NCBI GenBank assembly: GCA_963924555.1 | Contig: OZ004591.1 | Span: 1,922,001-1,986,000 of the forward strand | DNA length: 64,000 bases | Source: Crambe crambe | Lineage: Eukaryota > Porifera > Demospongiae > Poecilosclerida > Crambeidae | Direction: 5' to 3' | Shown: one piece after another, positions 22,001 to 57,407 of the stretch | Layout: each line of letters begins with the position of its first letter | How positions within the stretch are numbered: the stretch's first letter is position 1 | The notes under the pieces: model-generated | Told to the model about the DNA's origin: nothing | Database searches by the model: none | What the model saw: only the letters and a program-made list of their open reading frames with translations | Made by a program: the position numbers and the translations under genes

Positions 22001-25000
22001 CCATGCCCTCAAAAATTGTAGATCTGCCCCTGCTAATTACTACACCACTGGATTGTCTCCGTCTTGTGCCTGTATTGCATGAAATTCTCAACGGTTGTTG
22101 AACATTTTACTATAGCAACAGTCCTTATGTTTGGTCCTTGGGAAGATGGGTGTTAACCTTATCCTGTCTCTGGGAAGATGCAGAGGTGATGATGAGGTGA
22201 ATTACCAGCATGATCAGGGTATGCAAGTGTGAAAGTGTCATGCAGGCCAAAATTAACACGCAACATGAGAAAACTAAAAGTAGTGCAGTGAGGACATGCA
22301 AAACAAACTGGCTTGAGTTTTTAAAATTGTTACAGGTGCATCAGTTGACTAGAACAGACATAGAGGACAGAGGGAAGATTGGCAATGGAATCACTGGGGA
22401 GGTGTACAGAGTTCTTCACAAACCCAGTGGACAGTTCATGGCTGTCAAGGTACTTGTATAGTCCTGTTATATGGTGCTCATAACTTGAAGTGATCAGCAG
22501 CAATTAGAAAGATTGATAATTAATCGAAGGGGTCTACCCACACCACAGTGGTTGGCATTGCTATAATCACTGCTGATGCAAGGGATCTCCCCATAGTGGT
22601 TCTAGCTGCCTTAGAACACGAGTTAATTAGTATAGGTAATCACATGCTTTGAGTGTAATTTGGGTATAATTGCATGAGAAACTGGCTAGGTAATTGCACA
22701 AGGTGAAGCCGAATGCAATTTTAGACACCCAAATTGCACGAAAAAGCATGTGATTACCTATATTAATTATTAACTCATGTTCTAAGGCAGCTAGAACCAC
22801 CATGGGGAGATCCCCAGTGATTATAGCAATGCCAACCACTGTGGGTAGATCCCTTTGATTGCACGGGATGTATTAACCATATAAATGTCAGTAATCAATT
22901 AAGGGACATGTGGCATCTATTACCATGAGAAAATAATGTGGGAGGGCCAGGGGAAAGAGAGGGAGATTTAGATGGGTAGTGTGGTAATGACTAGGGGTCT
23001 CCCTGCAGTAGTTGGCCCCCCTCAGTCACATTAATGAATGACTCTTATCTAAACATGCTCTGTCCTTTAGCACCACCTACCCCGAATATGCTTCCTCCTT
23101 TAGCCCCGCCTCCTCTAGGTCCCTTAAACATACCCCCTCTCTTCATCCTTTAGCCCCACCCCCTCTGACATGTGATATAATGCAATATCTCTTCTGGTAG
23201 TATCTTGGACAAAAGATGAGCATTGAGCACCAAGTGTTTACTTGGGCTCAGATACATTGTAATGATCTTCTCTGTGTATGTTCATCAATGTAGAAAATGG
23301 TTTGGATGGATGAGACAGAGGAGAGGAAGAGAATCTACATGGATCTTAATGTCATGAGCATCCACAAGAGTCCTCACATTGTCAAATACTATGGCTCTGT
23401 CATCTGGAACGTAAGTCAAAATCAAGCCAATAAGATTCCTGCATTTGAGGTTCCTGGAGAAGCAGTCCTGGAGAGGTTGCTATCCAGTCTTCCTTAGGGT
23501 ATTATGTGTGGACTAACAGGATTGTTGCATTCAAGGTTGATTTGAGATACCAACCTGTTCCTCTGGGTATTAAAATAAGCTATAAGATTGCACGCACTTA
23601 CCAACCTCCTGGAATTTAGAGCTACAATTTATCCTTTTTTGGAAATACCATGGAAGTAATAGTGAGCACTTTTAGAAGTGTCCTGATTAGAGGGGCATCT
23701 TTATTTCAGGGGTACACTCAATAGCAACAAGATGCACTGATTCTATGCATATTTCAGGGAGAGTGGTGCCACTCTCTCTTTGAATCTTTGAGGCTTGACC
23801 TTTTACTGCAGTGCTGTGGTATCCTCGCCATAATGTCATGGGTGCAGTGCAGCACTACAATGACCTTTAAGACCTGAAATACAAAAAAAAAAAAAAAAGA
23901 GCTAGGATCATCCCTTAAATGAGAACACTCTCTAATCAGGACACCTAATCAGGACACCTCTAATCAGGACACCTAATCAGGACACCTCTAATCAGGACAC
24001 CTCTAATCAGAACACCAGGACACTCCAAATATAGATCTCTTGGTTCTTAGGAATATTCTGCTGACTGTATAGCTAAGTAGATGTAATTGGTTTACTATAC
24101 TCAGCATGCACAGAGTGTTGCTGTGTGCTAGTCATTCTGAAAACACAACTATACACCTGACAACAACACTTACTAACATAAATCCAAATATTGACATTTA
24201 GATCATCATCACCTGATCCGAGTAAACATCGTTGCATCATAAGGTCACCCACATTCAGTAGGTACACTTTTCAAAACGCATAACTTCATACATACGGTCC
24301 AGAGTGCTGTCTAGCATTATGTTTATCCTCTTGTGAATCCAGAATGGTGTGTGTAGTTATCCCTTTTACCCTTTTGTGAGTGGATTACTACTGCACCTTA
24401 ACCCTTACTGTGTGATGGTATGATGATGTATACACAATGAAGAATGATATCATTTATTGTGATTAACAATATGAGTGTGTAGTCAAGATTGTATTACTCT
24501 TCTCATTACCCTGTAGTGATTACAGAATTGTGGGTATGATTGTATTACATAACCTTCTCATTACCCTGTAGTGGTTACAGAATGAAGTGTGGGTATGCCC
24601 TTCTCAGAAGTGTGGGTATGATTGTATTACCCTTCTCATTACCCTGTAGTGATTGAAGTGTGGGTATGCCCTTCTCATTACCCTGTAATGATTACAGAAT
24701 GAAGTGTGGGCATGATTGTATTACATAACCTTCTCATTACCCTGTAGTGATTACAGAATGAAGTATTGTATTACATAACCTTCTCATTACCCTATTACAG
24801 AATGAAGTGTGGGTATTTATGGAGCTGATGGCCACTTGTTTACAGAGACTGTTCACCAGGTTGGCCAGTCCCATACCTGAGGACATAGTGTGCAAGATGG
24901 CAGTTTCTGTGAGTACATTCTACATAATCATTGTGTGTTCTTGGGCACTACTGATGGTGGTTTCTCAACCTGCAGATTGTTAAAGCTCTTCACTATTTAA

Positions 25001-26034
25001 AAACACAGCACAAGGTCATCCACAGAGGTCAGTTAGTGCTACTAGTATTTAAGGTACTCCATTACATGTGCCATTCATATCTCCTCCATTTTGGATCCAA
25101 CATTTTTGCTTCCTCCTCTGTAATATCTTCCTTTGAACTTTTTGCCAGGGCATAGTCTATATCTATGTTTGGACAAAAACAAACGAGCAAAACAGCTGGC
25201 CACACCAATTCATGTACATATGTATTTCTTCATTCATCCCTTTGATAAATTTCTCAATCTTCTTCACTCATCCTCTCCCTCTACCACTTCCTATGCAGAT
25301 GTGAAACCATCCAACATGCTGCTGGATAGAGAAGGGAATGTTAAACTCTGTGATTTTGGAATCAGTGGTCGTCTCGTCGACTCTCAAGCCTTCACGAGAA
25401 ATGCAGGCTGTGCTGCCTTCATGGCTGTAAGTCAACAATCGTTGTGTCTTTGTTACATGCAGTGACCTTTTTCTTGCATGCAATGTACATACAGCCTGAG
25501 CGCATCAAGCTGGATATCGGCAATGGTGGCTATGACATCAGAGCAGATATCTGGAGCCTGGGTATCTCATTGGTCCAGTTGGCAACAGGCAACACGCCTT
25601 ATTCAGAGCGGAAATTCAAGACGGAATTCGAGTTGCTCACTTACATTGTCAATGCTCCACCCCCTCTCCCAGAAACGGACAACTTCTCTCCTCAGTTCTA
25701 CGACTTCCTTTCCAAGTGGTAAGTAAGCTTGTATGACTCAGAGAAGAGGTTGGAAGTGGTCACATGAAAAAATATCAAAGCATGCAAAAAGTTTATGGAT
25801 GGCAGTTATAGTTACAGTGGAACCACACTTGGGATCTAGCCTCTATTTGGTATTATGAAGAGAACACTCTGATTGAGGTATATTTATTTATTTCTCTCCA
25901 GTCTGACAAAGGATGTTGAGATCCGACCTCAGTATGGTGAACTCTTGCAGCATCCACTTATTAAGGAGTATGAGAGCAAACCAGTTGATGTTGGGGCATG
26001 GCTAAGAGACATTGAACAAACTGTTGGCCTCTAG
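19080..26034 (+). CDS. MAP2K7: MAP kinase kinase 7 (JNK kinase)
   Basis: Eleven exons (19080-19183, 19379-19419, 19765-19804, 20401-20470, 22336-22449, 23294-23410, 24801-24908, 24976-25027, 25299-25426, 25495-25718, 25902-26034) splice in frame to 376 residues. The basic/proline-rich N-terminus is followed by a dual-specificity kinase domain. Visible elements are the glycine loop GNGITGEVY, catalytic lysine in FMAVK (about K123), HRDVKPSN (about 214-221), and [12 protein letters not shown] with activation residues near S244 and T248 in [18 protein letters not shown] and [15 protein letters not shown] follow. The SxAxT activation spacing and GRLVDS favour MKK7 over MKK4. By family it phosphorylates JNK on Thr and Tyr in cytoplasmic stress signalling. 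The C-terminal CLTKD...RPQY...HPLIKEYE segment matches the MKK7 docking region for upstream kinases. ATTAAA at 26139 is a possible poly(A) signal. Confidence 0.9.
19549..19757 (+). repeat. Pyrimidine (CCCTCCCTT) minisatellite abutting a 3' splice site
   Basis: About 200 bp of almost pure C/T in irregular CCTCCCCTCC/CCTTCCTCT units ends a few bases before the acceptor TATAG and MAP2K7 exon 3 (19765). The complementary strand has repeated GGGAGGGG-type runs capable of G-quadruplex formation. Confidence 0.9.
21366..21387. repeat. Poly(C) tract
   Basis: A run of about 22 C residues, preceded by a run of eight or more G (near 21330-21340), lies in MAP2K7 intron 4. The length is prone to sequencing error. 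Confidence 0.9.
22527..22862. mobile_element. Long-TIR MITE in MAP2K7 intron 5
   Basis: The two ends (about 22527-22652 and 22738-22862) are inverted copies. Both contain CAGTGGTTGGCATTGCTATA, a stretch with GATCTCCCC, GGTTCTAGCTGCCTTAGAAC and TAGGTAATCACATGCTTT in mirrored order. The core of about 85 bp has no coding capacity. This is a non-autonomous foldback DNA transposon. Confidence 0.8.
23933..24020. repeat. Short tandem repeat of CTAATCAGGACAC units
   Basis: Five or six near-identical CTAATCAGGACAC units occur in MAP2K7 intron 6. The same word occurs scattered through the window (for example near 33345 and 33418) as part of a dispersed repeat family. Confidence 0.8.
24497..24800 (+). 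repeat. Tandem duplications of a splice acceptor and exon 5' end
   Basis: Units containing TTCTCATTACCCTGTAGTG, ATTACAG and AATGAAGTGTGGGTATG recur five to six times, immediately before the genuine acceptor and exon at 24801. That exon itself begins AATGAAGTGTGGGTAT. Several copies carry a complete decoy acceptor plus the first five codons. Translation from a decoy would reach a stop (GTA TGA) after five codons in some units. Confidence 0.85.
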
Positions 26035-26321
26035 GTGTAATTATCCTAGTGTACTTACTTACTCTGTTGTTGTCTCTGACTTTCTGCAGGCAGGAATTGC
26101 TTCATTTTATAGTTATTTATTGCACTTTTTTTTTATGGATTAAATATTTTTATGTATTTTTTTATCTCTGTTAAATGTTCCATCTTTACTTTCTTATGAA
26201 TGCCATAGCATTTATATGTGGCGACCTTTACCGAGTTTGATTTTTCGCGCGCGCATATAAGAAGTGACGATCTTTACCTACTCGATGTCGACCCTTACCC
26301 TGTTTATTGACAAAAACAAAA
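26035..26321 (+). promoter_or_regulatory. Compact intergenic interval before the EF-hand gene
   Basis: Only 287 bp separate the MAP2K7 stop from the next ATG. The interval must hold the MAP2K7 3' UTR (ATTAAA at 26139-26144) and the next promoter. A CGCGCGCG run near 26247 is followed by two related words, GACGATCTTTACC and GACCCTTACC (also GCGACCTTTACC at about 26221), which could be repeated regulatory sites. Confidence 0.35.
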
Positions 26322-29184
26322 ATGGGGCAAAGTGAGTCTTCTTTCACGAGAACCTATCAAGAGACAGTGTCTCAACTCTCCAATGTACAATTAGGAGAAA
26401 TAACTACCAGATTTAACGAGCTTTACGCCAGTGCAGGGGGTACCAAGGGTTTGGTCGTGGACAGAGAAGCTTTCTCAAAGTACCTAAACGTCCCAGTAAC
26501 CATAGGAGATCGGTTATTCGACGCCTTTGATACTAAAAAGGTAACTACAGCTACTATACTAGTTAGCCAAAGTTGGCTATTGGTTTTCAGAAGAAACTGT
26601 GGCTATCTGTGACACTATTATACGTGAGTAATGACCTTTTACATTTCCTTTCTTCTAGAATGGAAGCATTTGCTTTGAAGAGTTTGTCTGTGGACTGGCA
26701 CTGGTGCTCCATGGGTCTTTCAAGGAAAGGTGTGGTCTTCTCTTCAGCGTGTTCAACCTGGGCAACGATGAGGGTATAACTCGTGCTGAGTTGCGTACCA
26801 TGCTGACTGCCATTCTCCAATCCACCAATACCATCTTGTACACCGTGGGAGACAAGGATAGTGCAGTGTTGGGCAGTATGGATATGAATGAGACAATTGT
26901 AGCCATGGTGGATGCTGCATTTGAGAACTGTGATATCTCGAAGTCTGGGAAGCTTCTACCGATGGTATGTATGTATGTATATATAGTATGAAAGCTATGT
27001 AAGCATGAGGTGTAGTACACTCTTCGAGATATGAATTACTTGCTAAATTCCTGACCAAGTTCAAGCATGATACATATTACTGCACTTCTGGGGATCATGT
27101 GAGCACAATATAAATATACCCCACCCCTTTTGTGGACAACTCCCAGGGATCATGTGAGCACAATAGCAAGCGTGATACACATTATTACTGCAACTAGCTA
27201 CTCCCAGAGATTATGTGAACACAATATCAAGCATGATATGCATTACTGTAACTAGCTACTCCCAGGGATCATGTGAGCACAATATCAAGCATGATACGCA
27301 TTACTACTCCCAGGGACCATGTGAGCACAATATCAAGCATGATATGCATTACTACTCCCAGGGACCATGTGAGCACAATATCAAGCATGATATGCATACT
27401 GCAACTAGCTACTCCCAGGGACCATGTGAGCACAATATCAAGCATGATATGCATACTGCAACTAGCGGATCATGTGAGCACAATAATTATATAGCCCACC
27501 CCTTTTGTGGAAAAGCATTATACTACAGCCAGGGATCATGTGAGCACAATAATAACCCACCAATTTTTTTATCTGAAGGTACAGGGCATCACATTCCTCC
27601 CCTCCATAACCATAATCACATTCCCTACCATCTCTGTATCCCTCCATTATCCCTTCCTTCTTTGTCCAGGAATTCGAATACTGGTTGAAGCGCAACCCTA
27701 AGATTCTAGACACCATGCTCTCCTTCAAAACCAAGAAAGAAGAGTGCACCCTTGGACCACTCATCATGTCCCCATCAGAACAGAGGCTCAGTGGAATCAC
27801 ACCCCTTCCCCAACAACAAAGTCCCACGACGAGTAGTAGTAACTCACCCCCACAGCAAAAGAAACGATCACCTTTTTCACTCCGAAGAAAAACATCAAAA
27901 GAGAAGTCACCAATTTCCAGTAGGAAATCAAGTGATACATCACAAAAATTATTTGAAATTGGATCATCCAGTGAAAATTCACTTGGTCCTGATAGCAGAC
28001 TAGGGTCCCTTACCACCGATGTTCTGCAGTCTCTTGCAATGAATACCAAGGAATCCCTCACTCAGGTCTCAGGTCAGGATATTGATCCAGGACAGGGTGG
28101 TGGTGGTGGTGGTGGAGTTCCAGGACAGGATATTCATGTTGGTCAGGCTGATCAAAGACAAGATGTGAAGAGTGTGTCTGGTGTGAATATGGTTGATCAG
28201 GATCCAGGAGAGGATGGATTGGTGATGAAAGTCGATGACATTGACGGTCAAGGAGAAGCAGATGAAGCAACTCCTCAAGTCTCCCTGCAACTTGATCGTG
28301 ATTCTGAGGGTGTACATGTGCAGGAGAGAGAGAGTCAAGGAGAGGAAGGAGGAGGAGTACTCGATGCTGTCACGATAGAGGGACTGGATGAAGACACTAA
28401 TGTGGCCATTGTAAGGCCAGATGGGACAGTAGTGGGGGGAAACACTAATGTGTCCATTCAAGAACCAGATGGGACAGTAGTGGGAAGGCTTGATGAGGAC
28501 ACAAATCTGAGAATCGAGGGGTTTGATGAGGCCATGACTGAGAGTGCAGGGGAGGAGAGAGTGGATCTGCTCCAACGGGAAGAAGAGGAGGAGAAAGGGG
28601 AACAGGGTGTATCCAATCAGCAGGTCGGGGTCAAGCTGGAGGAGCAAGTTGAGCAGGTGATTGAAACTGGACAAACGGGTATGACAGGTTCTCCTGTTGT
28701 TGCTCCTGCCAGTGAAGGAGTAGGAAGTGAGGAAGGTGTGGGCATGAACCACATGCCAGAGAATGTCGGCAGTATCATGCATGCTGACTCGGCACTTTCT
28801 ATCGACATGACAAAAGTCCCGCGGGTCCAAAGTCACGATCAACTGGGACCTGCCTCCCCTGTCCTCCCCACCCAGACCTTAGAGGAAGTCCCTATGGGAG
28901 GGTCCATAGCCTCATTCAGGATTGAGGAGGAAAAAGAGGAGGAAGAAGAGGTGGAACAGGAGAGAGAGGAAGAAACGACAAAGGAAGTCAAGGAAATGAG
29001 TTTAGCTGTAGGAGTGGCACTTACTGAGACCAGGAATTTAACCAAGGACAAGGACACAGGTGAGCTGTGTGAGATGTTTACAGTTCAGTTTTGTATTGGA
29101 CTCCACTCCACTGTGGAGACCCCAGAGTGTGGGCTACAAGTCAACCGTGACCAGAATAATTCATCACAGGTCACTGAGCTCTAG
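26322..29184 (+). CDS. Myristoylation-type EF-hand protein with long acidic disordered tail
   Basis: Exons 26322-26540, 26659-26964 and 27670 onward read in phase 0. The N-terminus MGQSESS fits an N-myristoylation signal (Gly2, Ser6). Three EF-hand loops are visible: DTKKNGSICFEE (canonical), a degenerate NLGNDEGITRAE, and DISKSGKLLPME, which spans the second splice. This is the layout of NCS, calcineurin-B or CIB-like calcium sensors. The third exon continues into about 450 residues of Ser/Pro-, Gly- and Glu-rich low-complexity sequence, including the repeats TNVAIVRPDGTVVGG and TNVSIQEPDGTVVGR. If the frame is read through, it stops at 29182-29184 (679 residues), with AATAAA at 29272. If the donor at 29060 is used, it joins TRAPPC12 in frame. 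Exact family is not recognised. It could act as a membrane-attached Ca2+ sensor. Confidence 0.7.
27090..27560. repeat. Degenerate tandem repeat around GGGA(T/C)CATGTGAGCACAATA
   Basis: About eight copies of a unit of roughly 45-65 bp contain ATCATGTGAGCACAATATC, AAGCATGATATGCATTACT and ACTAGCTACTCCC in varying combinations. They fill the second intron of the EF-hand gene. Repetitive open frames on both strands here come from the array and are not genes. Confidence 0.85.
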
Positions 29185-29271
29185 TAGGTCACTGAGCTCT
29201 AGTAGGTCATGTCACAGGGAAATTAGGACGTCAAGTAATATATAAGTGACTTGTACTCTGAGTAGTCCATT

Positions 29272-29277
29272 AATAAA
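29272..29277 (+). terminator. Possible poly(A) signal between EF-hand and TRAPPC12 coding regions
   Basis: AATAAA lies 88 bp after the in-frame stop at 29184 and inside the interval 29060-29373 that would otherwise be an intron. It could end a separate EF-hand transcript or a short isoform of a joint gene. Confidence 0.4.
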
Positions 29278-29373
29278 AAAGAATCTTATTATTAGTCTTG
29301 CACAGAGCTATCCATTTGCTGAAATCTGGTAAAGGGTTGTAATGAATGTTAGATGTTGTATTTACATACGTAG

Positions 29374-32300
29374 GTCAACTGGCCTCACCATCCACCCCCT
29401 CCCAGATGGCTCCACCCCTCTTCTTACCTGAGCCCCCCAAGGTCCCCTCCCGTGGAGTTAGCCCCTTCTTGGAGGAGAGCGAGGGTTCAGAGGTCGATGA
29501 GGACATCTATCAGGCATGGGTCTTAAATCCATGGACGCAGGGACTTCTGGAAAACCCTCAGCTTGGAGCTCACCTCACCTGTCCTGCACTTATGACCGAC
29601 ATTCAACCAGTACGTAGGTACCATAAGCAAATAACAACAATCAAGCAACAAGTAAACAAGCAAGCAAATAACAAACAATCAAGCAACAAGTAAACAAGCA
29701 AGCAAGCAAACAAACAAACAGTATAATACCCACCCCCTGGCTCCATAATTCTTCATTTGATTGTGCTGATTTGTTTGTACATATATAGGCTGATGGTATC
29801 AGTGATCTTCTGGCAACCAATTATCCTGATAGGCCAAGGAAAACCCTGTTATCAGTGGAGCATGTTTCCATGGATGCACATGGCCTTCGGAGATTAATAG
29901 TAAGACCAAGTTTTACGTGTATGTATAGATATCGTCTCGAGTCTTAATTGCACTGGTCACATCTATGTCTGTTTGTGAAAGGAGCTAGCTAAGTAGTTTA
30001 GTGTGATTATGATGAAAGGAGTACTGGCACATTGTTCACTTACAAGAGAGAGTGTATCAGGGTTTGAATTTTACCTACTGGTACATGTACGTACATGAGT
30101 ACATACTTTTCATGGACTCTCTGAACCCCCCCCCCCCCCACACACACACACGCACACACACACATCCACATACACACATATACACACAGTCTTCAGGTAG
30201 CCTACATGCAGCACTGGAGCTGACCGGGAGATTCCTCTCTGCCCACGGACAAGGCCTGGGACAAGCGGGTCAGCCCACTATCCATACCCACAAGACCCTC
30301 CAGATGTGGTGTGCTCGCATCGCTCTCATGGTACACCTTAAACTCTACAAGGAGGCAGAGCTGGAACTCCATGCCTTTGGCGAGATCTTGAACCCTGACC
30401 TTTACTATCAGTACCACACTCATTCCTACCCTGGGAAAAAAGGTTAGCAAGTTAACTACACTTACATACATAGACAGACACATCCTTTCCTTATCAGCAA
30501 GTGTTCTTTAGCAAGTTTCATGTAAATGGATTGGATGTGTTATGTGTACAGCCTGGTTCATACCCTGTCCTGACTCAGTTGGTTGGTTTATTTCAATGTC
30601 TAGGTAGCCTTGTGCCTTTTACCCTGAGGCTGCTGCATGCTAACTTGCCACGTTACACTGGCAAATTCCAGCTGGCATTGGACCGTCTCTGTTCACTACA
30701 GTGTGTCTGTGAACAGGTAAGGTGTGGTCAGCTACAAATACTGCATCTTGGTTGAGCAGTTGGTATTTCTATATAGATAGTGAATGAAGTCAGGAGGGGG
30801 CGATTACCTGGACTGGAGGAACCATTATCAAAATCTAACCTTGAAGGTTGGTATATGCATGTGCAACTATTGTTTACTAAATTACTTTGCTTACTGCTAG
30901 CTGTAACCGACTTAGTTCAATTCTTGACCAAATTCCCCTCCACTCTCTCTGCTAATGTCCTAAGCATGCAGCATGCTTAGGACATTGAATTATTCTGGTA
31001 TTTGAACACTGTGGCAGTTGCATTCAAGGTGTAAAGTGAACAGAGTGCCTTATCAATCTTAATTGGGTAGTGTTACACATAAGAATTGTTATACCGTGTA
31101 GTCTGATTTCAACCATGTACTCATCATGTTCACATCTCTTCCATACACAGTCATGGTGAACTTTGTTACAGAAAGTAGTTGTGCCCTTCAGTAGTTATTA
31201 TCCAGCTTTGGCTATGTCCTAATGTGATACATGATGTCCTCACCCTTTAAATAAGGATGCTAACACTTGTCCTGGTTCCATGATCACTATGTCAGAGAGT
31301 GAAGTTTACCCAAGTGTTTAAGAAAGGAGCATTTCACACGCTGACATACATATTTTTGCATTATTCCTATGGATACTAATTCTTGCTCAGCAGATTGTTT
31401 TGAAGCCTTGCTCCAATTATGAACGAATGGTTAACTAGCGATGAGACCACACCACTCCACCTTGAAGCTTTGCTCCTTATGAATGTAGAACTAGTTATAC
31501 TGTAGTATATACCCTGTAATGAGACCACCCCACCACCTTGATGGCTTGCTCCTTATGAATGTAGTGTAGTATACCCTGTAATGAGATCAATGTCCCAACA
31601 CTAACCTCCACCTCCCTATTAGGGGCCAGCAGTTAGCACATGCTGGATTGAATGGCTGTGTAAACTATGTGGTATGCAGAGATGCAGCCATATTTCTTGT
31701 TGATTGGCACTTAGCAGACAGCATTACTAAGCTTTTTACACACATTTTTGATACGGTTGTTCCACAGTGATGATAATTGGGGTGAGCCTGAGCAAGCCCC
31801 ACACTAGCGAGTGTGCTGAGAGATTTCTACTATATTGTATGTTCTAAGATTAATACTTTCTCCGCAACGATCATCTGGTAACATTACATTGTGCATGCAC
31901 AAACTTTTACAAAACGAAATTAAATAGTACAGCTAAAAGTTGTATCATCCTACACAGTAAAAAAAAACAACAGCAATAACTGAATCCTGTTATACAGTTG
32001 CTGAGAATATTTGGAGAGAGAGGCTATCCAGAGTCAAATGCAGCCTTGCCAACACTCTAATTGCCATGCAGGTTAGTATATCACATGATAATCATGTGAC
32101 TCAAAGGGGTATATTCATGTGATATATATACCCCTCACATTGCAGGAGTATGGCATGGCGGCAAAGCTGTATGAGCAGCTGGCAGAAGAATGTCCTGAGG
32201 CTAAGGCAGAACTTTATTCTGTAATAGGACGACTCTATCTCCAGGTCACTGGCTAAATGAATGAATCACCTAGGAAGGCTAAGGCCGGGTATATGTAGCA

Positions 32301-33728
32301 AGGTTCCATGCATAGATAGTTGATGAGATGGGTATTATACTAGGACCTATTGCTAATACATGTGCAAAGATATCTTTTGAAAGTATGATAATTTTGACAT
32401 ATAGTTGGGAGATCTACAGACTGCAAAGTTCTACTTTGACAAAGTATTGCAAGACCTGGGGAGTGAAACCCTAATCACAAAGTTAAATGAGTAAGCCCCT
32501 TTAATTGTTATGGGCCTATTAACAAAAAAGAGGTGTTGATGTGATGAGTGGTAGCTGTGTGAACAAGGGAGCCTATACCTATATGAAACCCAACCACATT
32601 TGTTATTTCTAGCCACCAGAAGAGGATAATACACCTCTGGTTGGAACTAAGAGAGAGAAAAGAAACCAATCTGAAAGAGAACAAATCTGTCTACAAAGGG
32701 CAATCTAAGCATACAATTGTATATACGCTCTTTTAGCTATACAAATAGCAGACAACCTCTCTACAAAAGAGGATGGTTCCCAAGTGTGTCCATCATTCAG
32801 ACTGTACAGTAGTTTGTTCTATGGCAGTATCCATAATAATATGTAAACTATTTAGGGGTTATATGAATGTCTTTCTATCACGCTGGCAAACAGCGAGTGA
32901 CTGTTTTGAAGGAGCACTGGCCTTGGATCCCTCCGACATGGTCATTCAGAGTAACATTGCCGTCTGCACTTTCTACATGGGAAGGCTCAAGGAGGTGTGT
33001 ATGTACGTACGAACAATTTCCAAGGTCCCTGTATGGGGTCAGCCTTGAAAACTGACCAATCAAGGTAGATGATATCATTATAAGCTGTTTACATGGTCAG
33101 AATGACAGGAGATTTATAATTCGATGTACGTAACTGTAGTGAATCAAACCACCTTGTAATGAGACCACCTCCGTAAAGCCAGGACTATTCTTGAGCTTGA
33201 GCACATTAGTGCTGAAAGCACAGTGGCGGAAATTCCAGGATTATTAATTATCATGAGCAGAAATTCTGGAAGTAGAATGTGCTTAAGCTTATATACTATA
33301 GTGGAACCCCTAAATGTGGACTCCCTGAAATGCAAAAACCTCTCTAATCAGGACACTTTTTCTTGTCCCAACTCAATATAAATGTGTATAATTTAACCCC
33401 TGAAATAGGGACACTTCTCTAATCAGGACACTTTTCACTGGTCCCAAAGGTGTCCGCATTTAGAGGTTCCACTGTACTGACACATCATTTTCTGGCCATC
33501 TTTGAAATTTGTGCATACATTTCTCTTTTATAGTCAATTATTTCCATGGAGAAGATGTTGATCTCTAACCCACCTTCATCTCTCCAACCTTCCCTCTTTG
33601 CTAACCTGGCCACTGCATACGAACTCGAGTCGGGGAGCAGCTCTCTGAAGAAGTTGGCATTTATACCACTGCTGGCTGAGCACATTGGACAGGGCTATCC
33701 ACACCTTAACCAGCTAAACATCAGGTGA
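29374..33728 (+). CDS. TRAPPC12: TRAPP complex subunit 12 (TPR protein), possibly fused to the upstream EF-hand protein
   Basis: Ten exons splice in frame: 29374-29609, 29789-29899, 30190-30442, 30604-30716, 30777-30846, 31998-32071, 32146-32244, 32405-32490, 32856-32994 and 33534-33728 (TGA). They give about 458 residues, with landmarks LATNYPDRP, RFLSAHGQGLGQAG, DLYYQYHTHSYPGKKGSLVP and NIAVCTFYMGRLKE. The C-terminal half consists of TPR helices and ends in a LATAYELES-type segment, as in human TRAPPC12. By family it belongs to TRAPPIII, acting in ER-Golgi traffic and autophagy. Start: an in-frame ATG at 29346 would give MLDVVFTYVG then the exon. Alternatively the acceptor at 29373 joins the phase-1 donor at 29060, making a protein of about 1096 residues with the EF-hands and acidic tail at its N-terminus. 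Human TRAPPC12 also has a long disordered acidic N-terminus, which mildly favours joining. The last stop overlaps a potential donor (AG/GTGA). Confidence 0.85.
30128..30189 (+). repeat. Poly(C)/(CA)n tract abutting a 3' splice site
   Basis: A C homopolymer of about 12 nt is followed by CA repeats, which run directly into the acceptor (ATATACACACAG) of the TRAPPC12 exon at 30190. Confidence 0.9.
33297..33478. mobile_element. MITE with ACAGTGGAACC-type terminal inverted repeats
   Basis: The left end TATAGTGGAACCCCTAAATG is mirrored by the right end CATTTAGAGGTTCCACTGTA. The core contains two copies of CTCTAATCAGGACACTTTT. It lies in the last TRAPPC12 intron. Related single ends occur elsewhere in the window. 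Confidence 0.7.
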
Positions 33729-34084
33729 CCATGCGAATAACTTTTCTCACTTTGTGCTTTCCTTTTTTTTGTTGTTGTTGTTTTTTGTTAAACTGTTTTT
33801 TTTTTGTTTTTTTTTTGTTTGTTTTTTCTAGTCAATAACTATTTGAGTAATAGTGTATCAGCAACTAAAGAGAATAGAGTCAAGCACCAAATGTATGTAG
33901 ACAGTGGAGATTCTTAATGTGAATATTAGTCCTAATTGAAGGGTCAGAGGTGAATTTGACCTTCTTTTTGGCACATCTACTTTTATTAGCACAGTATTAT
34001 TATACTCAAGGTGTCTCAGCTAGCTGAAGTGGAGTCTACTCGGACAGTCTATATAGCTTGATTCTAGTGTGCGGCAATACATTT
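33729..34084. other. Convergent 3' ends of TRAPPC12 and the single-pass membrane protein gene
   Basis: There is no coding sequence. A T-rich stretch (33763-33825, TTTTTTTGTT units) follows the TRAPPC12 stop. TTTATT at 33982-33987 is an AATAAA on the minus strand, about 100 bp past the stop of the opposing gene. Confidence 0.5.
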
Positions 34085-36187
34085 TTAGTCAGTTTCTTCA
34101 TCAGTAATGATAATAGATATGGCATTTGAATTTCGCTTCATGTCTGCTCCCTCCATTTCAAAATATTCATCTAGATCTATTGTCTCTTCTTTCTTTAAAA
34201 CCTCCTCTTTCTCCAGCTTTTCTTTTACTGCCTCCTCTTCTTTTACTTCCTCCTCTGTCACATCTTTCCTTTCTCTTTCTATTGCCACTTCGTTCATTCC
34301 TGACACTTTCTCTCTAGATCTGTCTAGGCTAGATTTACAAGAGGATGTCTTCAAGTCTGTCAAAGATGATGCAGTAGTTGATAACGTGAAGACACGTAAA
34401 AGCTCTTCTTTGATTCTATCTCTCCCTTCCATCTCTCCGTCCTCCCCTCGACGTACAACAAAAGTTCGAGGTGCGGAATTCCTCTTTCCTCCAGTCAGCA
34501 TGGTGATGGAAGAAATAGAACCAGTATTCACAAACGAACTCATATTTGACATAGTCTGTGCACGTCGCATACCTCTCCCTCTCTCCATCACATCCAAAAG
34601 GAAGCCTTTTTGCAGTCGTAGGCTGAGTTTCCTGTCCAAACATTCTGGGTTCTTGATATCGTTTATATTCTGCGCTGATGCACTGTGAAAGCACCCAGGG
34701 TGATGCACTCTTAGGTATTGCTGTTCTGGGTTTCTGTATTTATCCAAGAGTGCTGGGTCTGTGTTGGTTAGTCTTGCCAGTAGGTCCATATCTATCCTTG
34801 CTCGGATGTTGGGACTCAGTTTGTCTAGTGCTTCAAAGTTGATCTTTGCTTCGTATTCTTCCTGGATGCTGTATTCAACAGCATCCAGGTCATTAACTGC
34901 AATGTTATGTATAACAATAGATCATAGGGATTCATTAATAGCCAGCTACTGTTGATAACTGTTTTCAGATACAGTGGAATCCATGCTTGGGACCCAGCCT
35001 TTTGTCTTTTGTAAGAGAGGTTATCTTCTTTAGGAGGTTATATTTATGGAGAGGGTTTCGGAGTGCCACTACCTATAGCACTATGAAAAATAGGAGATAT
35101 CCTAGCCTGAAACCTGTAGGAAGCTTGGTAAAGAAATTCATAGAACACACAAGGGCACGGCATGCTTCTGTGTTTCCTATTCAAAATCTTATGAAATATG
35201 CCGTGCCCCTTGTGTATCTTATGAAAAAACACTGCATTTCCTTCAAGTTTCTCTTGGAAACACAAAGGAAATCTCTAATTTTTCATAGTGTAGATGACAT
35301 TTAAGTTGTAGCTACTATATAGAAAGAAATTTCTCTGCTCTACGTACCTATAGCTACCAAAAAAGGACTGATATTTTAGTTCATAAAATGCTTGTTCATT
35401 AGAAAGTTTCTCTCATGTCCTGACCCACTGCTATGCATGTTACACACAATGACATGGATAAGAATGGCAAGTGTTTTATCCCTTAGCTCACACACAATGA
35501 TATGATAGGTGTTTTATCCCTTAGCTAGAAAAATGAAAATTTTTCTTTGTCCCAGTGCAGTTAAGGCTTGGTAGCTATAACTATTATTTGCTTCACCCTT
35601 CAAACATGGACACCTTTCAAAAAGAAAAAAAAATGTTTCCCAAGCCTTTACTACTCCCCAGGCTTCCATATAGATCTAGTTGGCTGGAGATCTGAGGTCA
35701 TGTCATTACTCAGCTATATTTTACCTTGATCCTTCCTCATGAAGCAGTAAGCTACAGCAGATATGCACAGGACCACCATTACAACAGCCCCACATGCCCC
35801 TATGACACTCCCAACCACAACACTTATCAGTGAAGGAGACTGTTGTTGCAGATCAAGACTTTCTGTTGTAGCATCAAAGTGATTCATAGAGGAACTTGCA
35901 GAATCTGCAATTAAACTACAATTTACTGTTGTGTTGTTGCAATCATACAGGCATAGCCATCTAGCCAGTCACCACGGGCCTCGGTATAATGACAGGCAAA
36001 AATGAGCTTACGTGCCAGTAAAAATGAAAAGTGAAACGGAAAGAAAAAAAAAGACTTAAAAAAAAAAAAAATTGGGATAAAAAGCAATACTCCCTCCAGC
36101 TACTGCAACAAACCTACCCGATTTTATGATCAGATGAAGCAAGATAAATATTTCAAGAAGTCCCAGCATTATCTTCGTGACAGGCAT
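34085..36187 (-). CDS. Single-pass type I membrane protein, tiny ectodomain and 270-residue cytoplasmic tail
   Basis: Three exons splice in frame on the minus strand: 36118-36187 (ATG), 35725-35904 and 34085-34896 (TAA), giving 353 residues. Exon 1 encodes a hydrophobic signal peptide (LLEIFILLHLIIKS). Exon 2 gives about 30 Ser/Gln-rich extracellular residues, then a transmembrane helix (SVVVGSVIGACGAVVMVVLC...) stopped by MRKDQ. Exon 3 is a charged tail containing a helical start (DAVEYSIQEEYEAKINFEAL), two Arg/Ser-rich stretches, a Glu/Lys-rich segment likely to be helical or coiled, and the acidic end IIITDEETD. I do not recognise a family. The layout, with a short ectodomain next to a large signalling-like tail, suggests an adaptor or sheddase-stump type protein, but that is speculation. 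It lies head-to-tail behind the Ig/FN3 receptor on the same strand. Confidence 0.7.
35079..35290. mobile_element. Foldback MITE
   Basis: The left end CACTATGAAAAATAGGAGAT mirrors the right end ending in TTTTTCATAGTG. An inner pair, CACAAGGGCACGGCAT and ATGCCGTGCCCCTTGTG, is also inverted. There is no coding core. It lies in the intron between the transmembrane and cytoplasmic exons of the small membrane protein gene. Confidence 0.75.
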
Positions 36188-36468
36188 GAACGTGTTTCAG
36201 CAACTCGGCACAGCAACTTTGTTTTCAACACCTCATCCACATATTCTGCGCACGCTCAGTACATGTAAGAACATTTTTAAAAAGAAGGGAGGGTGATTCT
36301 AACGTGTGTAAATTATGTGTGCAAGACAGAATAACAATAGAGTCTACTCATTAAAAGAACACAGTAAGAGTTAGGCACCTTTTCAATTTTTTATTTTTTA
36401 TTTTTGTAATAATGTTTAGTTGTACAGCCTAGCTAGCTAGTTTACAAAAAACATTTTCTATAATCACA

Positions 36469-39400
36469 TCATAACATGGTGCCATCAGTGGTGGGAGGCA
36501 TGTCCTGGTAGCCACCACTGGGAGGGATGCTAGAATCTCCTCCCATCATTCCTTCCTTGCTTGATCTTTTGCCACCAAAGGAAGTTGGCTCGGCTAGCTC
36601 AGGTGACTCAGATTTGCTTGGCTTATCAAGGGTGTTGAAGGATGAGTGAGCTTGATAAGACTCTGGCATGTTGAATGTTACACCCGATTCCTAGAATAAA
36701 ATATTTATGAAAAGTTTATTGGAGGTACCCCATCCCCACTAAAGAGTAGAAGAACTTAATTGAGGCTTTAGGGAATTTAAAATAGCAGAGAAGCCTCATT
36801 ACTGACAGGGCTGTCTGATTCCAGGCCACCTCACTATAAATATAGTCTTCAGCCATTAATAATTTTAAATCACAGCAGACTTTCAACTTACTGCAGCAGT
36901 AGTATCACCCTCCTTATTTCGAGACAGTGGAACGTATGTGTTTGAGACTTCGAATAGATCATTGGTTCTGCGTGAAAAATAAAACAATGTAATAAAAGCA
37001 TGGTAGAAGAATTATAGAGCATGTCTCTATAAAGATGGATACTCCTAAAGAGGACAAACATCTCAACAAAGCCATACTCCATGGTCATAAAAGACGAAAG
37101 GCTGGAAATGCCACTACCTACCCAAAATTATCTCTATACCTAACTTACCTCTTGTCCACTCTCATAGCACCTGAGCATCAGATACAGCAGAACATGAAAA
37201 GAGCAGAACAGTTATGCATAAATTCATTATCATACTACATCTCTAGTAGTACCCCAAGCTAATCTTGCTGGTCTACCCTTTACCAAATCAAGGGAGGGTT
37301 TGAAAGTAGGTACAGGGTCTATGCACAAAGAACAGGCAAGTGAAAGGTCCTCACAGAAGCACATTTGGCTCTTATCTTAGTTTGAAAGTAGGTAGGCCTG
37401 ATGCAGAAAGAACAAACTCACAGGTTAAATAATGCTACAGCGTGGTGCAGCAAGTGGAAGGATTATATTAGCAACTATGACTAAGTTGAACTCACTTGTT
37501 TTTCGTGGCTTGTATTTTCCCCTATCGTCATTTTTTCTATAGCAGCAGCAGCACACGCCGATTAGGATGATCAAGATGATGATAATGAGCCCTCCTCCAC
37601 CACCCACAGCAGCTGCGATGATGATTGTGGTTTGGCTGATTCCACCTGGAGGACCACAAAGAGGGCAGAATGGGAGGGGAGAGAGGAAGGAGAGGAGGAG
37701 GAAGGAAGGAGAGGAAGGGGAGGAGGAGGAGGAAGGAAGGAGGGGAGGGAGGGATGAAAGGAAGGAGAGGAAGGGGAGGAGGAAGGAAGGAGAGGAGGGA
37801 GGAGAGGAAGGAGAGGAGGGAGGAGAGGAAGGGGAGGAGGAAGAGGAGGAGGGATGAGAGGAGTAGGGATGAAAGAAACATGTATGTATTGCTACCTGGT
37901 AAAGGGTCATCGATTATGTCAACGAAACACGAGGACACTCGTACTCATTGGACCAAGATTCAAGATTACGGACTAACCTGGTACGTTGTTACGAGATCGC
38001 ACATCCAAAAAGAAGCTCTTTGTAGTTCCTTCAATTGTGCAGTTGTAGAATCCCTCGTGCTCTAGCCTCACATTACTGATAATCAAGTTATTCTCGCTCA
38101 CGTTAAAGGATGGTGGGAGATTGCTACTACCATTGAAAAACCAAGTGATATTACTACCAAGGGCCATGAGGGGGGAGAAGCATGTTAGGACTGCTTCCTC
38201 ACCCTCTGTAACAGGAGGAGGAGGACCTTCGATCACAGGGTTAGGGGGGTCTGGAGAAGAGAGGAAGTGAACATGATAACAAATGCTGCAAAACTAGCAC
38301 AGCCAAGTTCATAGCTAATTAACAGTTGGTAAGGATTGTCACAGTCAACAAGACAGGCAATGGTGGTTGATCACCACACAGAGCCATTTCCATCAGCCTC
38401 ACGTTTTTGATATTAATTTTTGATAGTACTTGAGAAAAGGGGGTCTTATGGACCGAAAATTCAAAACGTAGTTATTGGCTAAAGCTCTTAATCTGGAGAT
38501 TTAAAATCGAATTCATACACCATTTCGTTCCAGAGTTATACTTAATTGTATATGTAAGCGTTTAACAGCTTTTAATGTTTTGCAAGATAAAGTACCATCA
38601 CATTGAAAAGGAATATTGTGACTCGATTGAATGAGACTTTTTCAAGGTTCATGAAAGCTACTCATCCAAATTAATATTGTGATGTTCATTGACAGAATAT
38701 GTACGTATGTACGCTGAGTGATACTCAAGGGTATCTGTGGACCACTTTCACAAAATGTAAAGTCTAACATTCATAAAGTAACTACCAAAACTATTGAGTT
38801 TTATCATTCCAGAAGAGAGGATTATCCTCAATTTCAATTTTCTGCTCAAGTGGTTCCTTTTCCATAGATCCTATCACATTACTTAGTTATGGTGGAAAGC
38901 AGCCTGTGCTATAGCAGCTCTGCCTGCATGCTGTCTTGATTCACTTACTATGAGTACGGATGCGAAGCTGGGGACTTGCAGGTGAAGTTCCATTGTCATT
39001 GACAGTGAGGACTTCCACCACATAACTGGTGGCGGGTCTAAGGTTGTCCAGTTGCACCATCTGCTGTGTTCCATTGATAGTCCTGTTGGAGACATTTACC
39101 TCTGTGGACCCATCACTCCCAAGCTGTCTGTATCGGACCACATATTCGTTCACAGTACCACCCGGGTTTACCCAGGTCACTATTGCACTGATATTTTGGA
39201 CATATAGGAGCATTGGCTCATCCAGAATGGGCTGAGGCAGCTCTGCATCAAGAGAGAAAAATGGATCCAACATTTTCATAAACTTACCCCACCCACTGGT
39301 AAGAAATCGCAAACGAAATTCTCAGTGCTTAAAAGTGATTGAGCATCCAAGCATCTATTTTTAGGAAACTAGAAATCTCTGTCCACTTATCACGGCATCC

Positions 39401-39504
39401 AGTTAAATATTCCATGCTATCCACTCACCAATTGAGAGTGTAGTGCCAGTGTCACTCGCAGGACGACCGAAATCTGCTTCATTTCCAGCTGCCACATTCA
39501 CTCT

Positions 39505-39543
<39 letters not shown>

Positions 39544-42500
39544 AAAAACAAACAAAAACAAAACAAAAACAACAACACCAAGTCAAAAGGAGACCCTACC
39601 ACACCCTCCAGCCACACCCACGAGTGATTGCTATGAATTAATAGAGTAATAGGATTTCTAATTCAGAATCAGTGCATCTATTTATTACTCGAATCTTAAA
39701 GTGTGGGAGATCAGATCAGCCCTTTTGCAATTATGGAACATACACATAAGTGGTACTCCCCATTAAGACAGTCATATTCGTATCTCTGATAAGAAAACTT
39801 CTGTTATTTGCAGAAACATTTGCTGAGAAAATGGCAGCAGAATCATCGAAAACCTCGAAAACTGTAATTTGATAGGCTGACACTGGCCGCCCTCCATTCT
39901 CCAAAGGAGGCATCCATGATACCATCAGAGAAAAGGATGTCATCCCATCAGTGACACTCACTGCCAGTGGTTCACTAGGGGCTGTGAGGCAAGGAAACAA
40001 TCAGAATATAAGTCACTGCACATGAGGAATCATGATTTTGGGTTTGTGTAATGGTAATGACCGATATGAGATAGGGATTAGGAAAAAGCATCTGGAATCT
40101 GTCTTGGGTTTGGAAGAGATAGCATGCCTGACAAAGCAATGAATACCCAAGGGGTTATCAAAGGTGTGTGGAATCTATCCTGGGTTTGGAAGAGATAGGG
40201 ATTGGAGCATGCCTGGCAAAGCAATGAAGACCCAAGGGGTTATCAAAGGTGTGAACAGCAATGTCTTGGGTTTGGGTAATGACTAATGAGATAGGGATTG
40301 GAGCATGCCTGGTAAAGCAATGAAGATCCAAGGGGTTATCAAAGGCGTGAATACTGCAAGTTTCACTTCTGTTTGAACATTGAGTTCTTGCGTATGACCT
40401 TTGACCCCCACTGTATATACTAAGGTGCAACAGCTCACACAATTTTCAAAGGCAGGTGAAATCAACCCAAGAGGCAATACCATAAGTGAATGTAAATTCA
40501 ATCAGCTCAAAGGATATGATGACATGATCTGTCTGCATATACAAAAATAGAAGTCTAATGATGCTCTTCCTTGAGGGGAAACCTAACACCCATGCAACTT
40601 GGTTAATAATATCACATTTCCAGTTCTGATGATCCACGTGCTAATCACCTTTCACAGTAGCTTCCTCAATTTCTATTGTGAACACTCTGGGATGAAATTT
40701 TTTTTTGAATTTTCCTACCTCAATCAATACTTTTTTTTCTTCCCACAATTATTTTTTTAAACAAGAAATAGACCCTTGGAAACTTTACTTTTTGTAAGAT
40801 ACTTAATTAACTTTATATACTCACGATCCACATCAGTCTGGGTAGAACTCATTATTGAGAAATCTCCCGTTCCCCTGACATTGATTCCAGCAACTCTTGC
40901 GCGATACATAGTACCCTTCTCCAGTCCTCCATACCTTATCTGCGTCGTTGCAGCTTCTGTCATGTTTGCCATGATTGGTGTCATTGCATCTTCTAAAAAA
41001 AACTCGATTTTCCACATGATCGGAGCATCTGTGGTGGCCAATGGAGCAGGAGGCTAGAGGGCAGATACAGCTGCGTTACAATACATTTTCTATTAGGCTG
41101 ATAAGCAGTATGACCATACAAAGAAATGATTATGTGTATGCATTGGAGATTTTGAATAGATGCCCCACTTGGAGCTAAAATTGATGTCTCAATCATTGGT
41201 CATCGGGTGTTACAGCTTGGTACCCAGTATCTTGTGTGTGTGATAAAGCACCACAAGAAAATGCTCAAAACAAAAACAAACTTTGCAGGCAGGAATGATA
41301 CATCTTAGCACTATCAATTCACGAAAAATCAAATCCCCAATTCGTTGGGAACTGATTGTCTACACAGGCACTAGGAGCCTCAGTGTGATGTAAAATTCTT
41401 AGTGTTTTTTCACAAAAAATAAATTTGTTACATCATTGCAAGACCCCCACCATGGAAAGATTACTACAACATTTGATCTCTCCCCTGAACCCTGATTCAT
41501 ATGATATATTTCTACAGACTCAACTACTTGACAACAGCTGATGTATAATTAACACACACTGTGGCAGCAAAGAATTTTGTGATGGTCATGCATACACACA
41601 CACTTTATTGGAACGAGTTTGATTTTTGATATATGATTTGTAAGACTATGAACATCTATTGAGTCAATGCATGTCTTGCACTGAACCTGGGAACTGGTTT
41701 TTGAGCATTTTAATCAGCCATTTTTTAAACAAAACTAGCTCTTCATATCTTACGAACAAAAAGGATGGAAGCAAGTGAGCGCAAAAAGGTTAAGTAGGAA
41801 TGGCTAGTTGGGCTGCTACATTTACAACTGCCATTAGCTTTAGGCTATCCTAGTTGGGCTGCTACATTTACAACTGCCATTAGCTTTAGGCTATCCTAGT
41901 TGGGCTGCTACATTTACAACTGCCATTAGCTTTAGGCTGTCCTAGTTGGGCTGCTACATTTACAACTGCCATTAGCTTTAGGCTATCTCTACCTAACCTT
42001 TTTATTTAGAAGAATTATTATTTTTTTGCACTCACTTGTGGTTTATGAGACAAAGGGGTCAGGTTTCGTAAACCACTATCTATTTCTTATTCCTTATGGA
42101 CAACCATCCTGAAATCTGTCAACGTGATTGTTTCAGTTCATTGGCAGCAGGTGCTGCACCACTAAACAAGGATACTGGATGGTTTAAAATAGCACCAGTA
42201 GCTATGTGTGCATGTGGCATGTGGCACACATGCATACTTGGTCCATTTGACATAATTCTAAGGTTTCTAACAGATAAAAAACATGAAGGAAACCACCTAA
42301 ATGTATAACCAGAGGCTAGTAAAGCTCAGTGGATCAAACAGTACGGTAGGTATGTTGACGATGTTGTCAAATGGCATACATAGGGACATGAATACACGGA
42401 AAGTGAAACCTCAGGATTAGCATGCCTTGTTCGGTACAGCAGATAGTGATCTTGCAACAGAACAGCAAAACTAAAATTTATATAGACTCCTTTCAAGTAG

Positions 42501-50137: not shown

Positions 50138-57407
<7,270 letters not shown>

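What the first reader, a model, noticed from the sequence alone, without database searches (positions are those of the whole stretch)
26322..33728. Possible EF-hand/TRAPPC12 fusion with a competing intronic stop and poly(A) signal
A good donor at 29060 (ACACAG/GTGAGC, phase 1) and an acceptor at 29373 (phase 1) would join a myristoylation-type EF-hand protein to TRAPPC12 in frame (about 1096 residues). If not spliced, the frame stops at 29184 with AATAAA 88 bp later, and an in-frame ATG (29346) could start TRAPPC12 alone. So the locus is a novel fusion, a splice/polyadenylation switch making two products, or two genes 161 bp apart. A calcium-sensing, membrane-anchored TRAPPIII subunit is not known to me.
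Basis: partly seen in the sequence, partly recalled or inferred. Interest (0 to 1): 0.75.

Follow-up and report, generated by a model that had tools for sequence, protein, structure and literature searches.

The report
Likely EF-hand/TRAPPC12 fusion gene
In this animal genome, a subunit of a membrane-traffic complex (TRAPPC12) is most likely made as one long protein with an extra front end that looks like a lipid-anchored calcium-binding module, an arrangement not found in the papers searched and still awaiting a transcript to prove it.

Summary
Thirteen exons from 26322 to 33728 give one open 1,096-residue frame: myristoylation-type start, degenerate EF-hands, basic cluster, acidic stretch, TRAPPC12 (36% over 436 residues to my recalled human TRAPPC12). 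Each half has one close copy in the genome. A gene finder trained on 264 kb without this gene used junction 29059^29374 in 8 of 8 printed decodes. Donor 29060 is the strongest of the gene's 12 (28 of 14,720 GTs score as high, itself included); the acceptor is average. A chance in-frame pair this good is about 0.2-0.6%. Fusion beats split by 1.7, 6.3 or 9.6 nats depending on model order. Against: the read-through tail is mildly coding-like, and the simplest model is not decisive. The poly(A) signal is weak evidence: 18 of 54 similar introns carry AATAAA. Separate TRAPPC12 starts score poorly. Calcium binding is unproven: no loop fits the recalled pattern. No transcripts or related genomes were available, so fusion is favoured, not shown.

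The parts
26322..26540 (+). exon 1: start, MGQSESS (myristoylation-type N-terminus), first part of the EF-hand module
   Evidence: recalled pattern match
26659..26964 (+). exon 2: EF-hand loop 2 (residues 106-117) and most of loops 1 (70-81, spans exons 1-2) and 3 (165-176, last residue in exon 3)
27670..29059 (+). exon 3: end of the EF-hand module, basic cluster, long low-complexity acidic stretch (residues about 211-638; disorder judged by composition only)
27853..27933 (+). basic cluster, residues 237-263 (25-residue windows with net charge +9), inside exon 3
29060..29373 (+). the disputed intron, 314 nt, GTGAGC...CGTAG, phase 1; joins the EF-hand part to TRAPPC12
29060..29184 (+). read-through of exon 3 if the intron is kept: 41 residues (the first, Gly, shared with the spliced form), then stop TAG 29182-29184
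29168..29209 (+). 18-bp tandem duplication that contains the in-frame stop
29272..29277 (+). AATAAA, possible intronic poly(A) signal
29346..29348 (+). in-frame ATG, possible independent TRAPPC12 start; out-of-frame ATG at 29342 just upstream scores higher
29374..29609 (+). exon 4: start of the TRAPPC12-like part; alignment to recalled human TRAPPC12 begins here; alternative in-frame ATG 29406
29789..29899 (+). exon 5, TRAPPC12
30190..30442 (+). exon 6, TRAPPC12
30604..30716 (+). exon 7, TRAPPC12
30777..30846 (+). exon 8, TRAPPC12
31998..32071 (+). exon 9, TRAPPC12
32146..32244 (+). exon 10, TRAPPC12 TPR region
32405..32490 (+). exon 11, TRAPPC12 TPR region
32856..32994 (+). exon 12, TRAPPC12
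33534..33728 (+). exon 13, TRAPPC12 C-terminus and stop

Best explanation
One gene, transcribed from upstream of 26322, whose main product is spliced at 29059^29374 into a 1,096-residue fusion. An EF-hand module with a myristoylation-type N-terminus and a following basic cluster (residues 1 to about 263) is tethered by a long acidic, disordered-looking linker to a complete TRAPPC12 TPR region. Inferred mechanism: the front module acts as a lipid-plus-charge membrane anchor for TRAPPIII at the vertex where TRAPPC12 sits, placing the Rab1 exchange factor on early Golgi or autophagy membranes, with phosphorylation of the basic cluster or weak calcium binding as possible modulators. Shown here: frame, domains, splice-site strength, one close copy of each half. 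Inferred: that the junction is used in cells, myristoylation, the membrane role, any calcium effect.
For: Open 13-exon frame of 1,096 aa. A gene finder trained without this gene uses 29059^29374 in 8 of 8 printed decodes: 1, 6, 1. Fused-minus-split log-odds +1.7 (sd 1.0), +6.3 (1.4), +9.6 (2.5) nats for order 2, 3, 4 models over 200 bootstraps each. Donor 29060 is the strongest of the gene's 12 and at the 84th percentile of 223 predicted donors; acceptor at the 46th. Only 0.24% of 4,160 random pairings and 0 of 39 predicted tandem neighbours (highest 11.82 against 12.09) reach the same summed score in frame; simple product 0.56%. Composition changes at the donor: Cys 0 of 428 in the preceding stretch, 3 of 40 in the read-through tail (p = 0.0006), 0 of 48 after the acceptor. 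Independent start codons are poor: 29346 and 29406 lie at the 5th and 2nd percentile of predicted starts, with a better out-of-frame ATG at 29342.
Against: No transcript or second species seen. The order-2 model is only slightly in favour (95.5% of 200 bootstraps above 0). The read-through tail scores as ambiguous to mildly coding: ln likelihood ratio coding:intron 2.0, 0.4, 0.0 for orders 2, 3, 4; only 3%, 11%, 14% of 37 intron read-throughs score as high. Cys plus aromatics are also raised after the acceptor (3 of 48 against 4 of 428, p = 0.025), so that measure does not separate tail from exon 4. AATAAA at 88 bp after the stop is where a 3' end could be (two of four tubulin loci inspected have one about 107 nt after the stop). 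The accepted start 26322 is itself only at the 17th percentile. Predicted tandem genes under 200 bp apart are common (11 of 39). TRAPPC12 from 29346 or 29406 would still hold the whole region matching human TRAPPC12. The finder made errors in this gene: exons missed at orders 3-4 and a false split near exon 11.
Confidence: 0.7

Rival explanations
1. Two separate, closely spaced genes: an EF-hand protein of 679 residues ending at 29184 with its own poly(A) signal, and TRAPPC12 of about 467 (ATG 29346) or 447 residues (ATG 29406) with its own promoter in the 161-bp gap.
For: Stop, AATAAA and in-frame ATG are all present; ambiguous to mildly coding character of the 41-codon tail; 11 of 39 predicted tandem pairs under 200 bp apart; PMC4432959 (passages seen) reports a median intergenic distance of 587 bp in Amphimedon, so compact spacing is normal if this is a sponge.
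Against: Needs a very strong donor and an average acceptor in matching phase by coincidence (about 0.2-0.6%); poor start codons with an out-of-frame ATG 4 bp upstream of 29346; Cys enrichment of the tail against the preceding stretch.
Confidence: 0.15
2. A regulated switch: splicing gives the fusion, failure to splice plus cleavage near 29290 gives an EF-hand-only protein that could compete for membrane or partners without TRAPPC12.
For: A retained intron gives a stop at 29184 with AATAAA 88 bp on; tail ambiguous to mildly coding; the PMC4432959 abstract (seen) says most alternatively spliced Amphimedon genes undergo intron retention.
Against: AATAAA is present in 18 of 54 predicted introns of 200-500 nt, and predicted introns carry it as often on the sense as on the antisense strand (85 and 87), so it is not distinctive. 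[quoted passage not shown] this intron is of ordinary length and has the gene's strongest donor. No structure signal in the intron (z -1.14).
Confidence: 0.1
3. Operon: one pre-mRNA cut at AATAAA 29272 and the downstream TRAPPC12 mRNA capped by spliced-leader trans-splicing at acceptor 29373; first in-frame ATG 29406.
For: A poly(A) signal 96 nt upstream of an acceptor resembles operon spacing (about 100 bp in C. elegans, PMC7986045 passages); PMC10282587 passages report predicted leader sequences on 4% of long reads in a glass sponge.
Against: Leaves the top-ranked donor at 29060 and its matching phase unexplained; 29406 is a poor start; no leader RNA was sought in this genome.
Confidence: 0.03

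Closest known systems
TRAPPC12 (TTC15, TRAMM), TRAPPIII-specific subunit
   Same: C-terminal 447 residues align over 436 positions at 36% identity to human TRAPPC12 as I recall it; TPR matches within residues 914-973; preceded by an acidic, low-complexity region, as in the recalled human protein.
   Different: An EF-hand module with a myristoylation-type N-terminus lies in front. The low-complexity part shows no detectable alignment to the recalled human one (99% of 300 shuffles score at least as well).
Neuronal calcium sensor / KChIP / CBL type EF-hand proteins
   Same: Best solved relatives are KChIP4, KChIP2, calsenilin and CBL4 (E 3.5e-12 to 7.2e-10, residues 58-198 between them); N-terminal MGxxxS.
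   Different: Loop 1 has Lys at position 3, loop 2 begins with Asn, loop 3 has Leu at position 9; none fits the recalled PROSITE pattern. Carries over 400 low-complexity residues and, if fused, TRAPPC12.
USP32 N-terminal EF-hand region
   Same: Weak Pfam match PF25265, residues 53-102 (E 0.0032, 17.7 bits, below the 27-bit cut-off).
   Different: No ubiquitin protease domain among the Pfam matches of the whole protein at E up to 1.
Composite terminal exon (intronic poly(A)) genes such as IgM and CSTF3
   Same: A retained intron would carry stop and AATAAA.
   Different: Ordinary intron length with a strong donor; human sites of this type are typically in large introns with weak donors (PMC3708835 passages).

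Membership tests
TRAPPC12 | sequence homology through the pre-TPR and TPR region | tested here: met
   (158 of 436 identical to the recalled human sequence, E 3e-82)
TRAPPC12 | single-copy orthologue in the genome | tested here: met
   10 of 10 matches at E <= 0.001 lie in this gene
TRAPPC12 | incorporation in TRAPPIII with TRAPPC8, C11, C13 | not testable with these tools
   biochemistry needed; the other subunits were not searched for
Calcium-binding EF-hand (NCS-like) | EF-hand sequence homology | tested here: met
Calcium-binding EF-hand (NCS-like) | at least one loop fitting the canonical calcium-binding pattern (PROSITE PS00018, recalled) | tested here: not met
   0 matches in 1,096 aa; loop 3 keeps D1, S3, S5, E12
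Calcium-binding EF-hand (NCS-like) | N-terminal myristoylation motif | tested here: met
   recalled pattern; the modification itself is not shown
Gene fusion | in-frame join with credible splice sites | tested here: met
Gene fusion | spliced transcript | not testable with these tools
   no transcripts held
Gene fusion | same join in relatives | tested here: inconclusive
   no relatives held for this genome; no match to the TRAPPC12 part in the prokaryote or viral collections, as expected for an animal gene
Intronic poly(A) switch | weak donor and large intron (typical, not obligatory) | tested here: not met
Intronic poly(A) switch | poly(A) signal beyond chance | tested here: not met
   18 of 54 comparable predicted introns have AATAAA
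Spliced-leader operon | leader on downstream mRNA | not testable with these tools
   no transcripts held

The most novel reading that the evidence does not exclude
The lineage evolved a membrane-anchored TRAPPIII in which TRAPPC12 carries its own myristoylated EF-hand switch, and the fusion intron is a regulated splice/poly(A) switch that releases the same module as a free EF-hand protein competing with the fused one.
Probability: 0.08. Interest if true: 0.78.

Novelty: new variant of a known kind. Interest (0 to 1): 0.42.

Why it matters
How TRAPPIII is held on its membranes in animals is, to my knowledge, open; a figure legend of the Drosophila structure paper calls the drawn membrane placement hypothetical (PMC8204870 passages). 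A natural fusion that puts a lipid-anchor-type module on the subunit at the joint of the two arms would give a direct, testable hint that this vertex faces the membrane. It would also be a new domain combination for Rab1 activation. My paper searches for TRAPPC12 with EF-hand (2 papers), TRAPPC12 with calcium (39 papers, 8 listed), TRAPP complex with calcium-binding and Rab1 (2) and TRAPPIII with myristoyl (6) listed nothing that looks like a description of such a subunit, judged from titles and abstract starts only.

Tried and rejected
Homologues in other genomes: one scan each of genome contigs and viral contigs with the TRAPPC12 part gave none (the EF-hand part was not scanned there). Homology between the low-complexity stretch and the recalled human TRAPPC12 N-terminus: none. 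RNA structure in the intron: not significant. Rfam: no match in the window at gathering score. Calibrating poly(A) signals from predicted gene ends gave 3 of 65 with AATAAA within 150 nt, below the 8.3% of random 150-mers; predicted ends are unreliable, so I give that number little weight. The four tubulin loci are too few: L032 has AATAAA 107 nt after the stop, L034 about 107 nt after a stop read by eye, L035 none in 400 nt, and L033 was not informative because the longest frame did not end like a tubulin. Solved TRAPPC12 structures by sequence: only generic TPR proteins matched (21 hits). The Ras-family table brought no DNA and was not used. Passages of PMC7090148 said nothing on the TRAPPC12 N-terminus. 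The log-odds printed (1.4 to 13.0) used a wrong second start, 29404, which is not an ATG; with 29406 the values are those.

Structure prediction was not used, because the spliced protein is not a contiguous translation of the window and the question did not need it.
Full report
WHAT IS THERE. The window lies at bases 1922001-1986000 of contig C14 in a 143-Mb genome of 119 contigs with no relatives held. The donor at 29060, the acceptor ending at 29373, the read-through stop at 29182-29184, AATAAA at 29272 and the ATG at 29346 are all present.

THE TWO HALVES. The front half has EF-hands (Pfam EF-hand_6, E 8.9e-11 for residues 1-194) and its nearest solved relatives are KChIP and calcineurin-B-like proteins. 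The CBL4 match runs across residues 60-198, so it also supports the exon 2-exon 3 join. The start MGQSESS fits the myristoylation pattern as I recall it; residues 239-263 carry net charge +9; then follow about 375 low-complexity, largely acidic residues up to 638. I call this stretch disordered from its composition; no disorder predictor was run. The three EF loops are DTKKNGSICFEE, NLGNDEGITRAE and DISKSGKLLPME; none fits the recalled PROSITE calcium-binding pattern, although the third keeps the side chains at positions 1, 3, 5 and 12. The back half is TRAPPC12: 36% identity over 436 residues to the human protein as I recall it, with the match beginning inside exon 4. In this genome 3 of 6 matches to the EF-hand part are its own exons and 3 are faint (25% identity); 10 of 10 matches to the TRAPPC12 part are its own exons.

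IS THE JUNCTION REAL? I wrote a small unsupervised gene finder (codon-phase Markov chains, splice and start matrices begun from recalled consensus), trained it on 264 kb of this contig and left genes overlapping 26000-34500 out of the coding and splice training; the non-coding background was not so restricted. In 8 of 8 printed decodes the junction 29059^29374 was used. Both order-2 runs recovered the 13 exons of the hand-made model except that the exon 5 end and exon 6 start were shifted (29918 and 30197 instead of 29899 and 30190). Orders 3 and 4 missed many TRAPPC12 exons and one of these runs ended the gene at 29693; the longer order-2 training wrongly split TRAPPC12 near exon 11. So the finder is far from perfect. 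In this gene its errors were missed exons, early ends and a false split; whether it falsely joins genes elsewhere was not tested.

Direct comparison of the two readings at this spot gave fused-minus-split log-odds of 1.7 (sd 1.0), 6.3 (1.4) and 9.6 (2.5) nats for Markov orders 2, 3 and 4 over 200 bootstraps each; 95.5% of the order-2 bootstraps and all of the others were above zero. The donor scores 7.24, the highest of the gene's 12; 28 of 14,720 GTs score as high, itself included. The acceptor scores 4.85; 555 of 17,866 AGs score as high, itself included, and it is at the 46th percentile of predicted acceptors. The 314-nt length is ordinary (predicted median 225).

COULD IT BE CHANCE? The coding part of exon 3 with its read-through has 97 GTs, of which 0.18 would be expected to score this high; with three open-frame acceptors and phase matching the joint chance is about 0.56%. 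Pairing last and first exons of 65 predicted genes at random, 0.24% of 4,160 pairings reach the same sum in frame, 0.43% for the 11 last exons of 600 nt or more, and 0 of 39 predicted tandem neighbours, the highest of which reaches 11.82 against 12.09. These pairings are biased low because the finder will already have spliced at strong donors.

OTHER SIGNS. The read-through tail differs from the stretch before it: Cys 3 of 40 against 0 of 428 (p 0.0006), order-promoting residues 17 of 40 against 99 of 428 (p 0.012); the 48 residues after the acceptor are like the stretch before on both (0 of 48 and 11 of 48). Cys plus aromatics, however, are raised both in the tail (5 of 40, p 0.0004) and after the acceptor (3 of 48, p 0.025). 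The Cys comparison was chosen after seeing the tail. On codon statistics, with leave-one-gene-out calibration, the tail is ambiguous or mildly coding: ln ratio 2.0, 0.4, 0.0 for orders 2, 3, 4, with 3%, 11% and 14% of 37 intron read-throughs scoring as high and 46%, 17% and 18% of 540 coding stretches scoring as low. This is the main sequence evidence against the fusion. If TRAPPC12 stood alone it would start at 29346 or 29406, at the 5th and 2nd percentile of predicted starts, and ATG 29342, better scoring and out of frame, would come first; the start at 26322 is itself only at the 17th percentile. Predicted starts are chosen by the model, so this is supportive, not decisive.

THE POLY(A) SIGNAL. 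The gene has one sense AATAAA (and two on the antisense strand) where about five per strand would be expected from the regional rate, and the one is in this intron. But 18 of 54 predicted introns of 200-500 nt contain AATAAA, and predicted introns carry it equally on both strands (85 sense, 87 antisense), so its presence is weak evidence for a 3' end. Human intronic poly(A) sites of this type are typically in large introns with weak donors (PMC3708835, passages), the opposite of this one. U1 is said to protect transcripts from such signals in human, mouse and Drosophila (PMC5499120, abstract start in the listing). A minor short product cannot be excluded; in Amphimedon most alternatively spliced genes undergo intron retention (PMC4432959, abstract and passages).

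MECHANISM. In Drosophila TRAPPIII, TRAPPC12 and TRAPPC13 sit at the joint of the TRAPPC8 and TRAPPC11 arms (PMC8204870 abstract and passages), and mammalian TRAPPC12 is in the cytosol and on ER exit sites (PMC5327430 passages). An N-terminal module with a myristoylation-type start and a basic cluster, on a long acidic tether, would most simply add a membrane hold at that joint. This is inference from parts. The EF-hands may now serve as a fold for protein binding rather than as calcium sensors.

VERDICT. Observation confirmed; interpretation partly supported. A fusion gene is the best reading (0.70), ahead of two genes (0.15), a functional splice/poly(A) switch (0.10) and an operon (0.03). In my prior, domain fusions are rare, which is why I stay below the odds that the gene finder alone would give. 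No transcript and no second species were available, so the case rests on sequence signals. It is a new variant of a known protein, not a new kind of system.

Noticed in passing
window 27139-27485: Minisatellite in intron 2, unit about 48-58 bp, about six copies.
   Followed up: no
window 29168-29209: 18-bp perfect tandem duplication (2.3 copies) carrying the in-frame stop TAG and a copy of it.
   Followed up: partly
window 28370-28530: Imperfect internal repeat in the low-complexity part (LDEDTN and PDGTVVG, twice each), seen by eye in the translation.
   Followed up: no
window 24801-26034: Predicted protein kinase exons (Pkinase E 5.2e-37), same strand, stop at 26034, 287 bp before the EF-hand start; looks MAP2K-like by eye.
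   Followed up: partly
window 34085-37165, minus strand: Convergent predicted gene with a hydrophobic stretch and no Pfam match at E 0.001, its end 356 bp after the TRAPPC12 stop.
   Followed up: no
window 37973-40984, minus strand: Predicted fibronectin type III / immunoglobulin domain protein.
   Followed up: no
window 56757-57407, plus strand: Kinase exon with Pkinase and Pkinase_C, AGC type; the predicted exon 51098-51328 looks like its N-terminal part by eye.
   Followed up: no
window 59689-63228, plus strand: Predicted glycosyltransferase family 18 gene (PF15024, E 1.2e-56).
   Followed up: no
G000:C14:185850-194238: Five tandem tubulin matches, each with an upstream first-part match, on the minus strand.
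   Followed up: no
264-kb training region: Predicted 3' ends show no enrichment of AATAAA (3 of 65 within 150 nt against 8.3% of random 150-mers); either the ends are wrong or the species often uses other signals. TRAPPC12 itself has neither AATAAA nor ATTAAA on its strand between its stop and 34200.
   Followed up: partly
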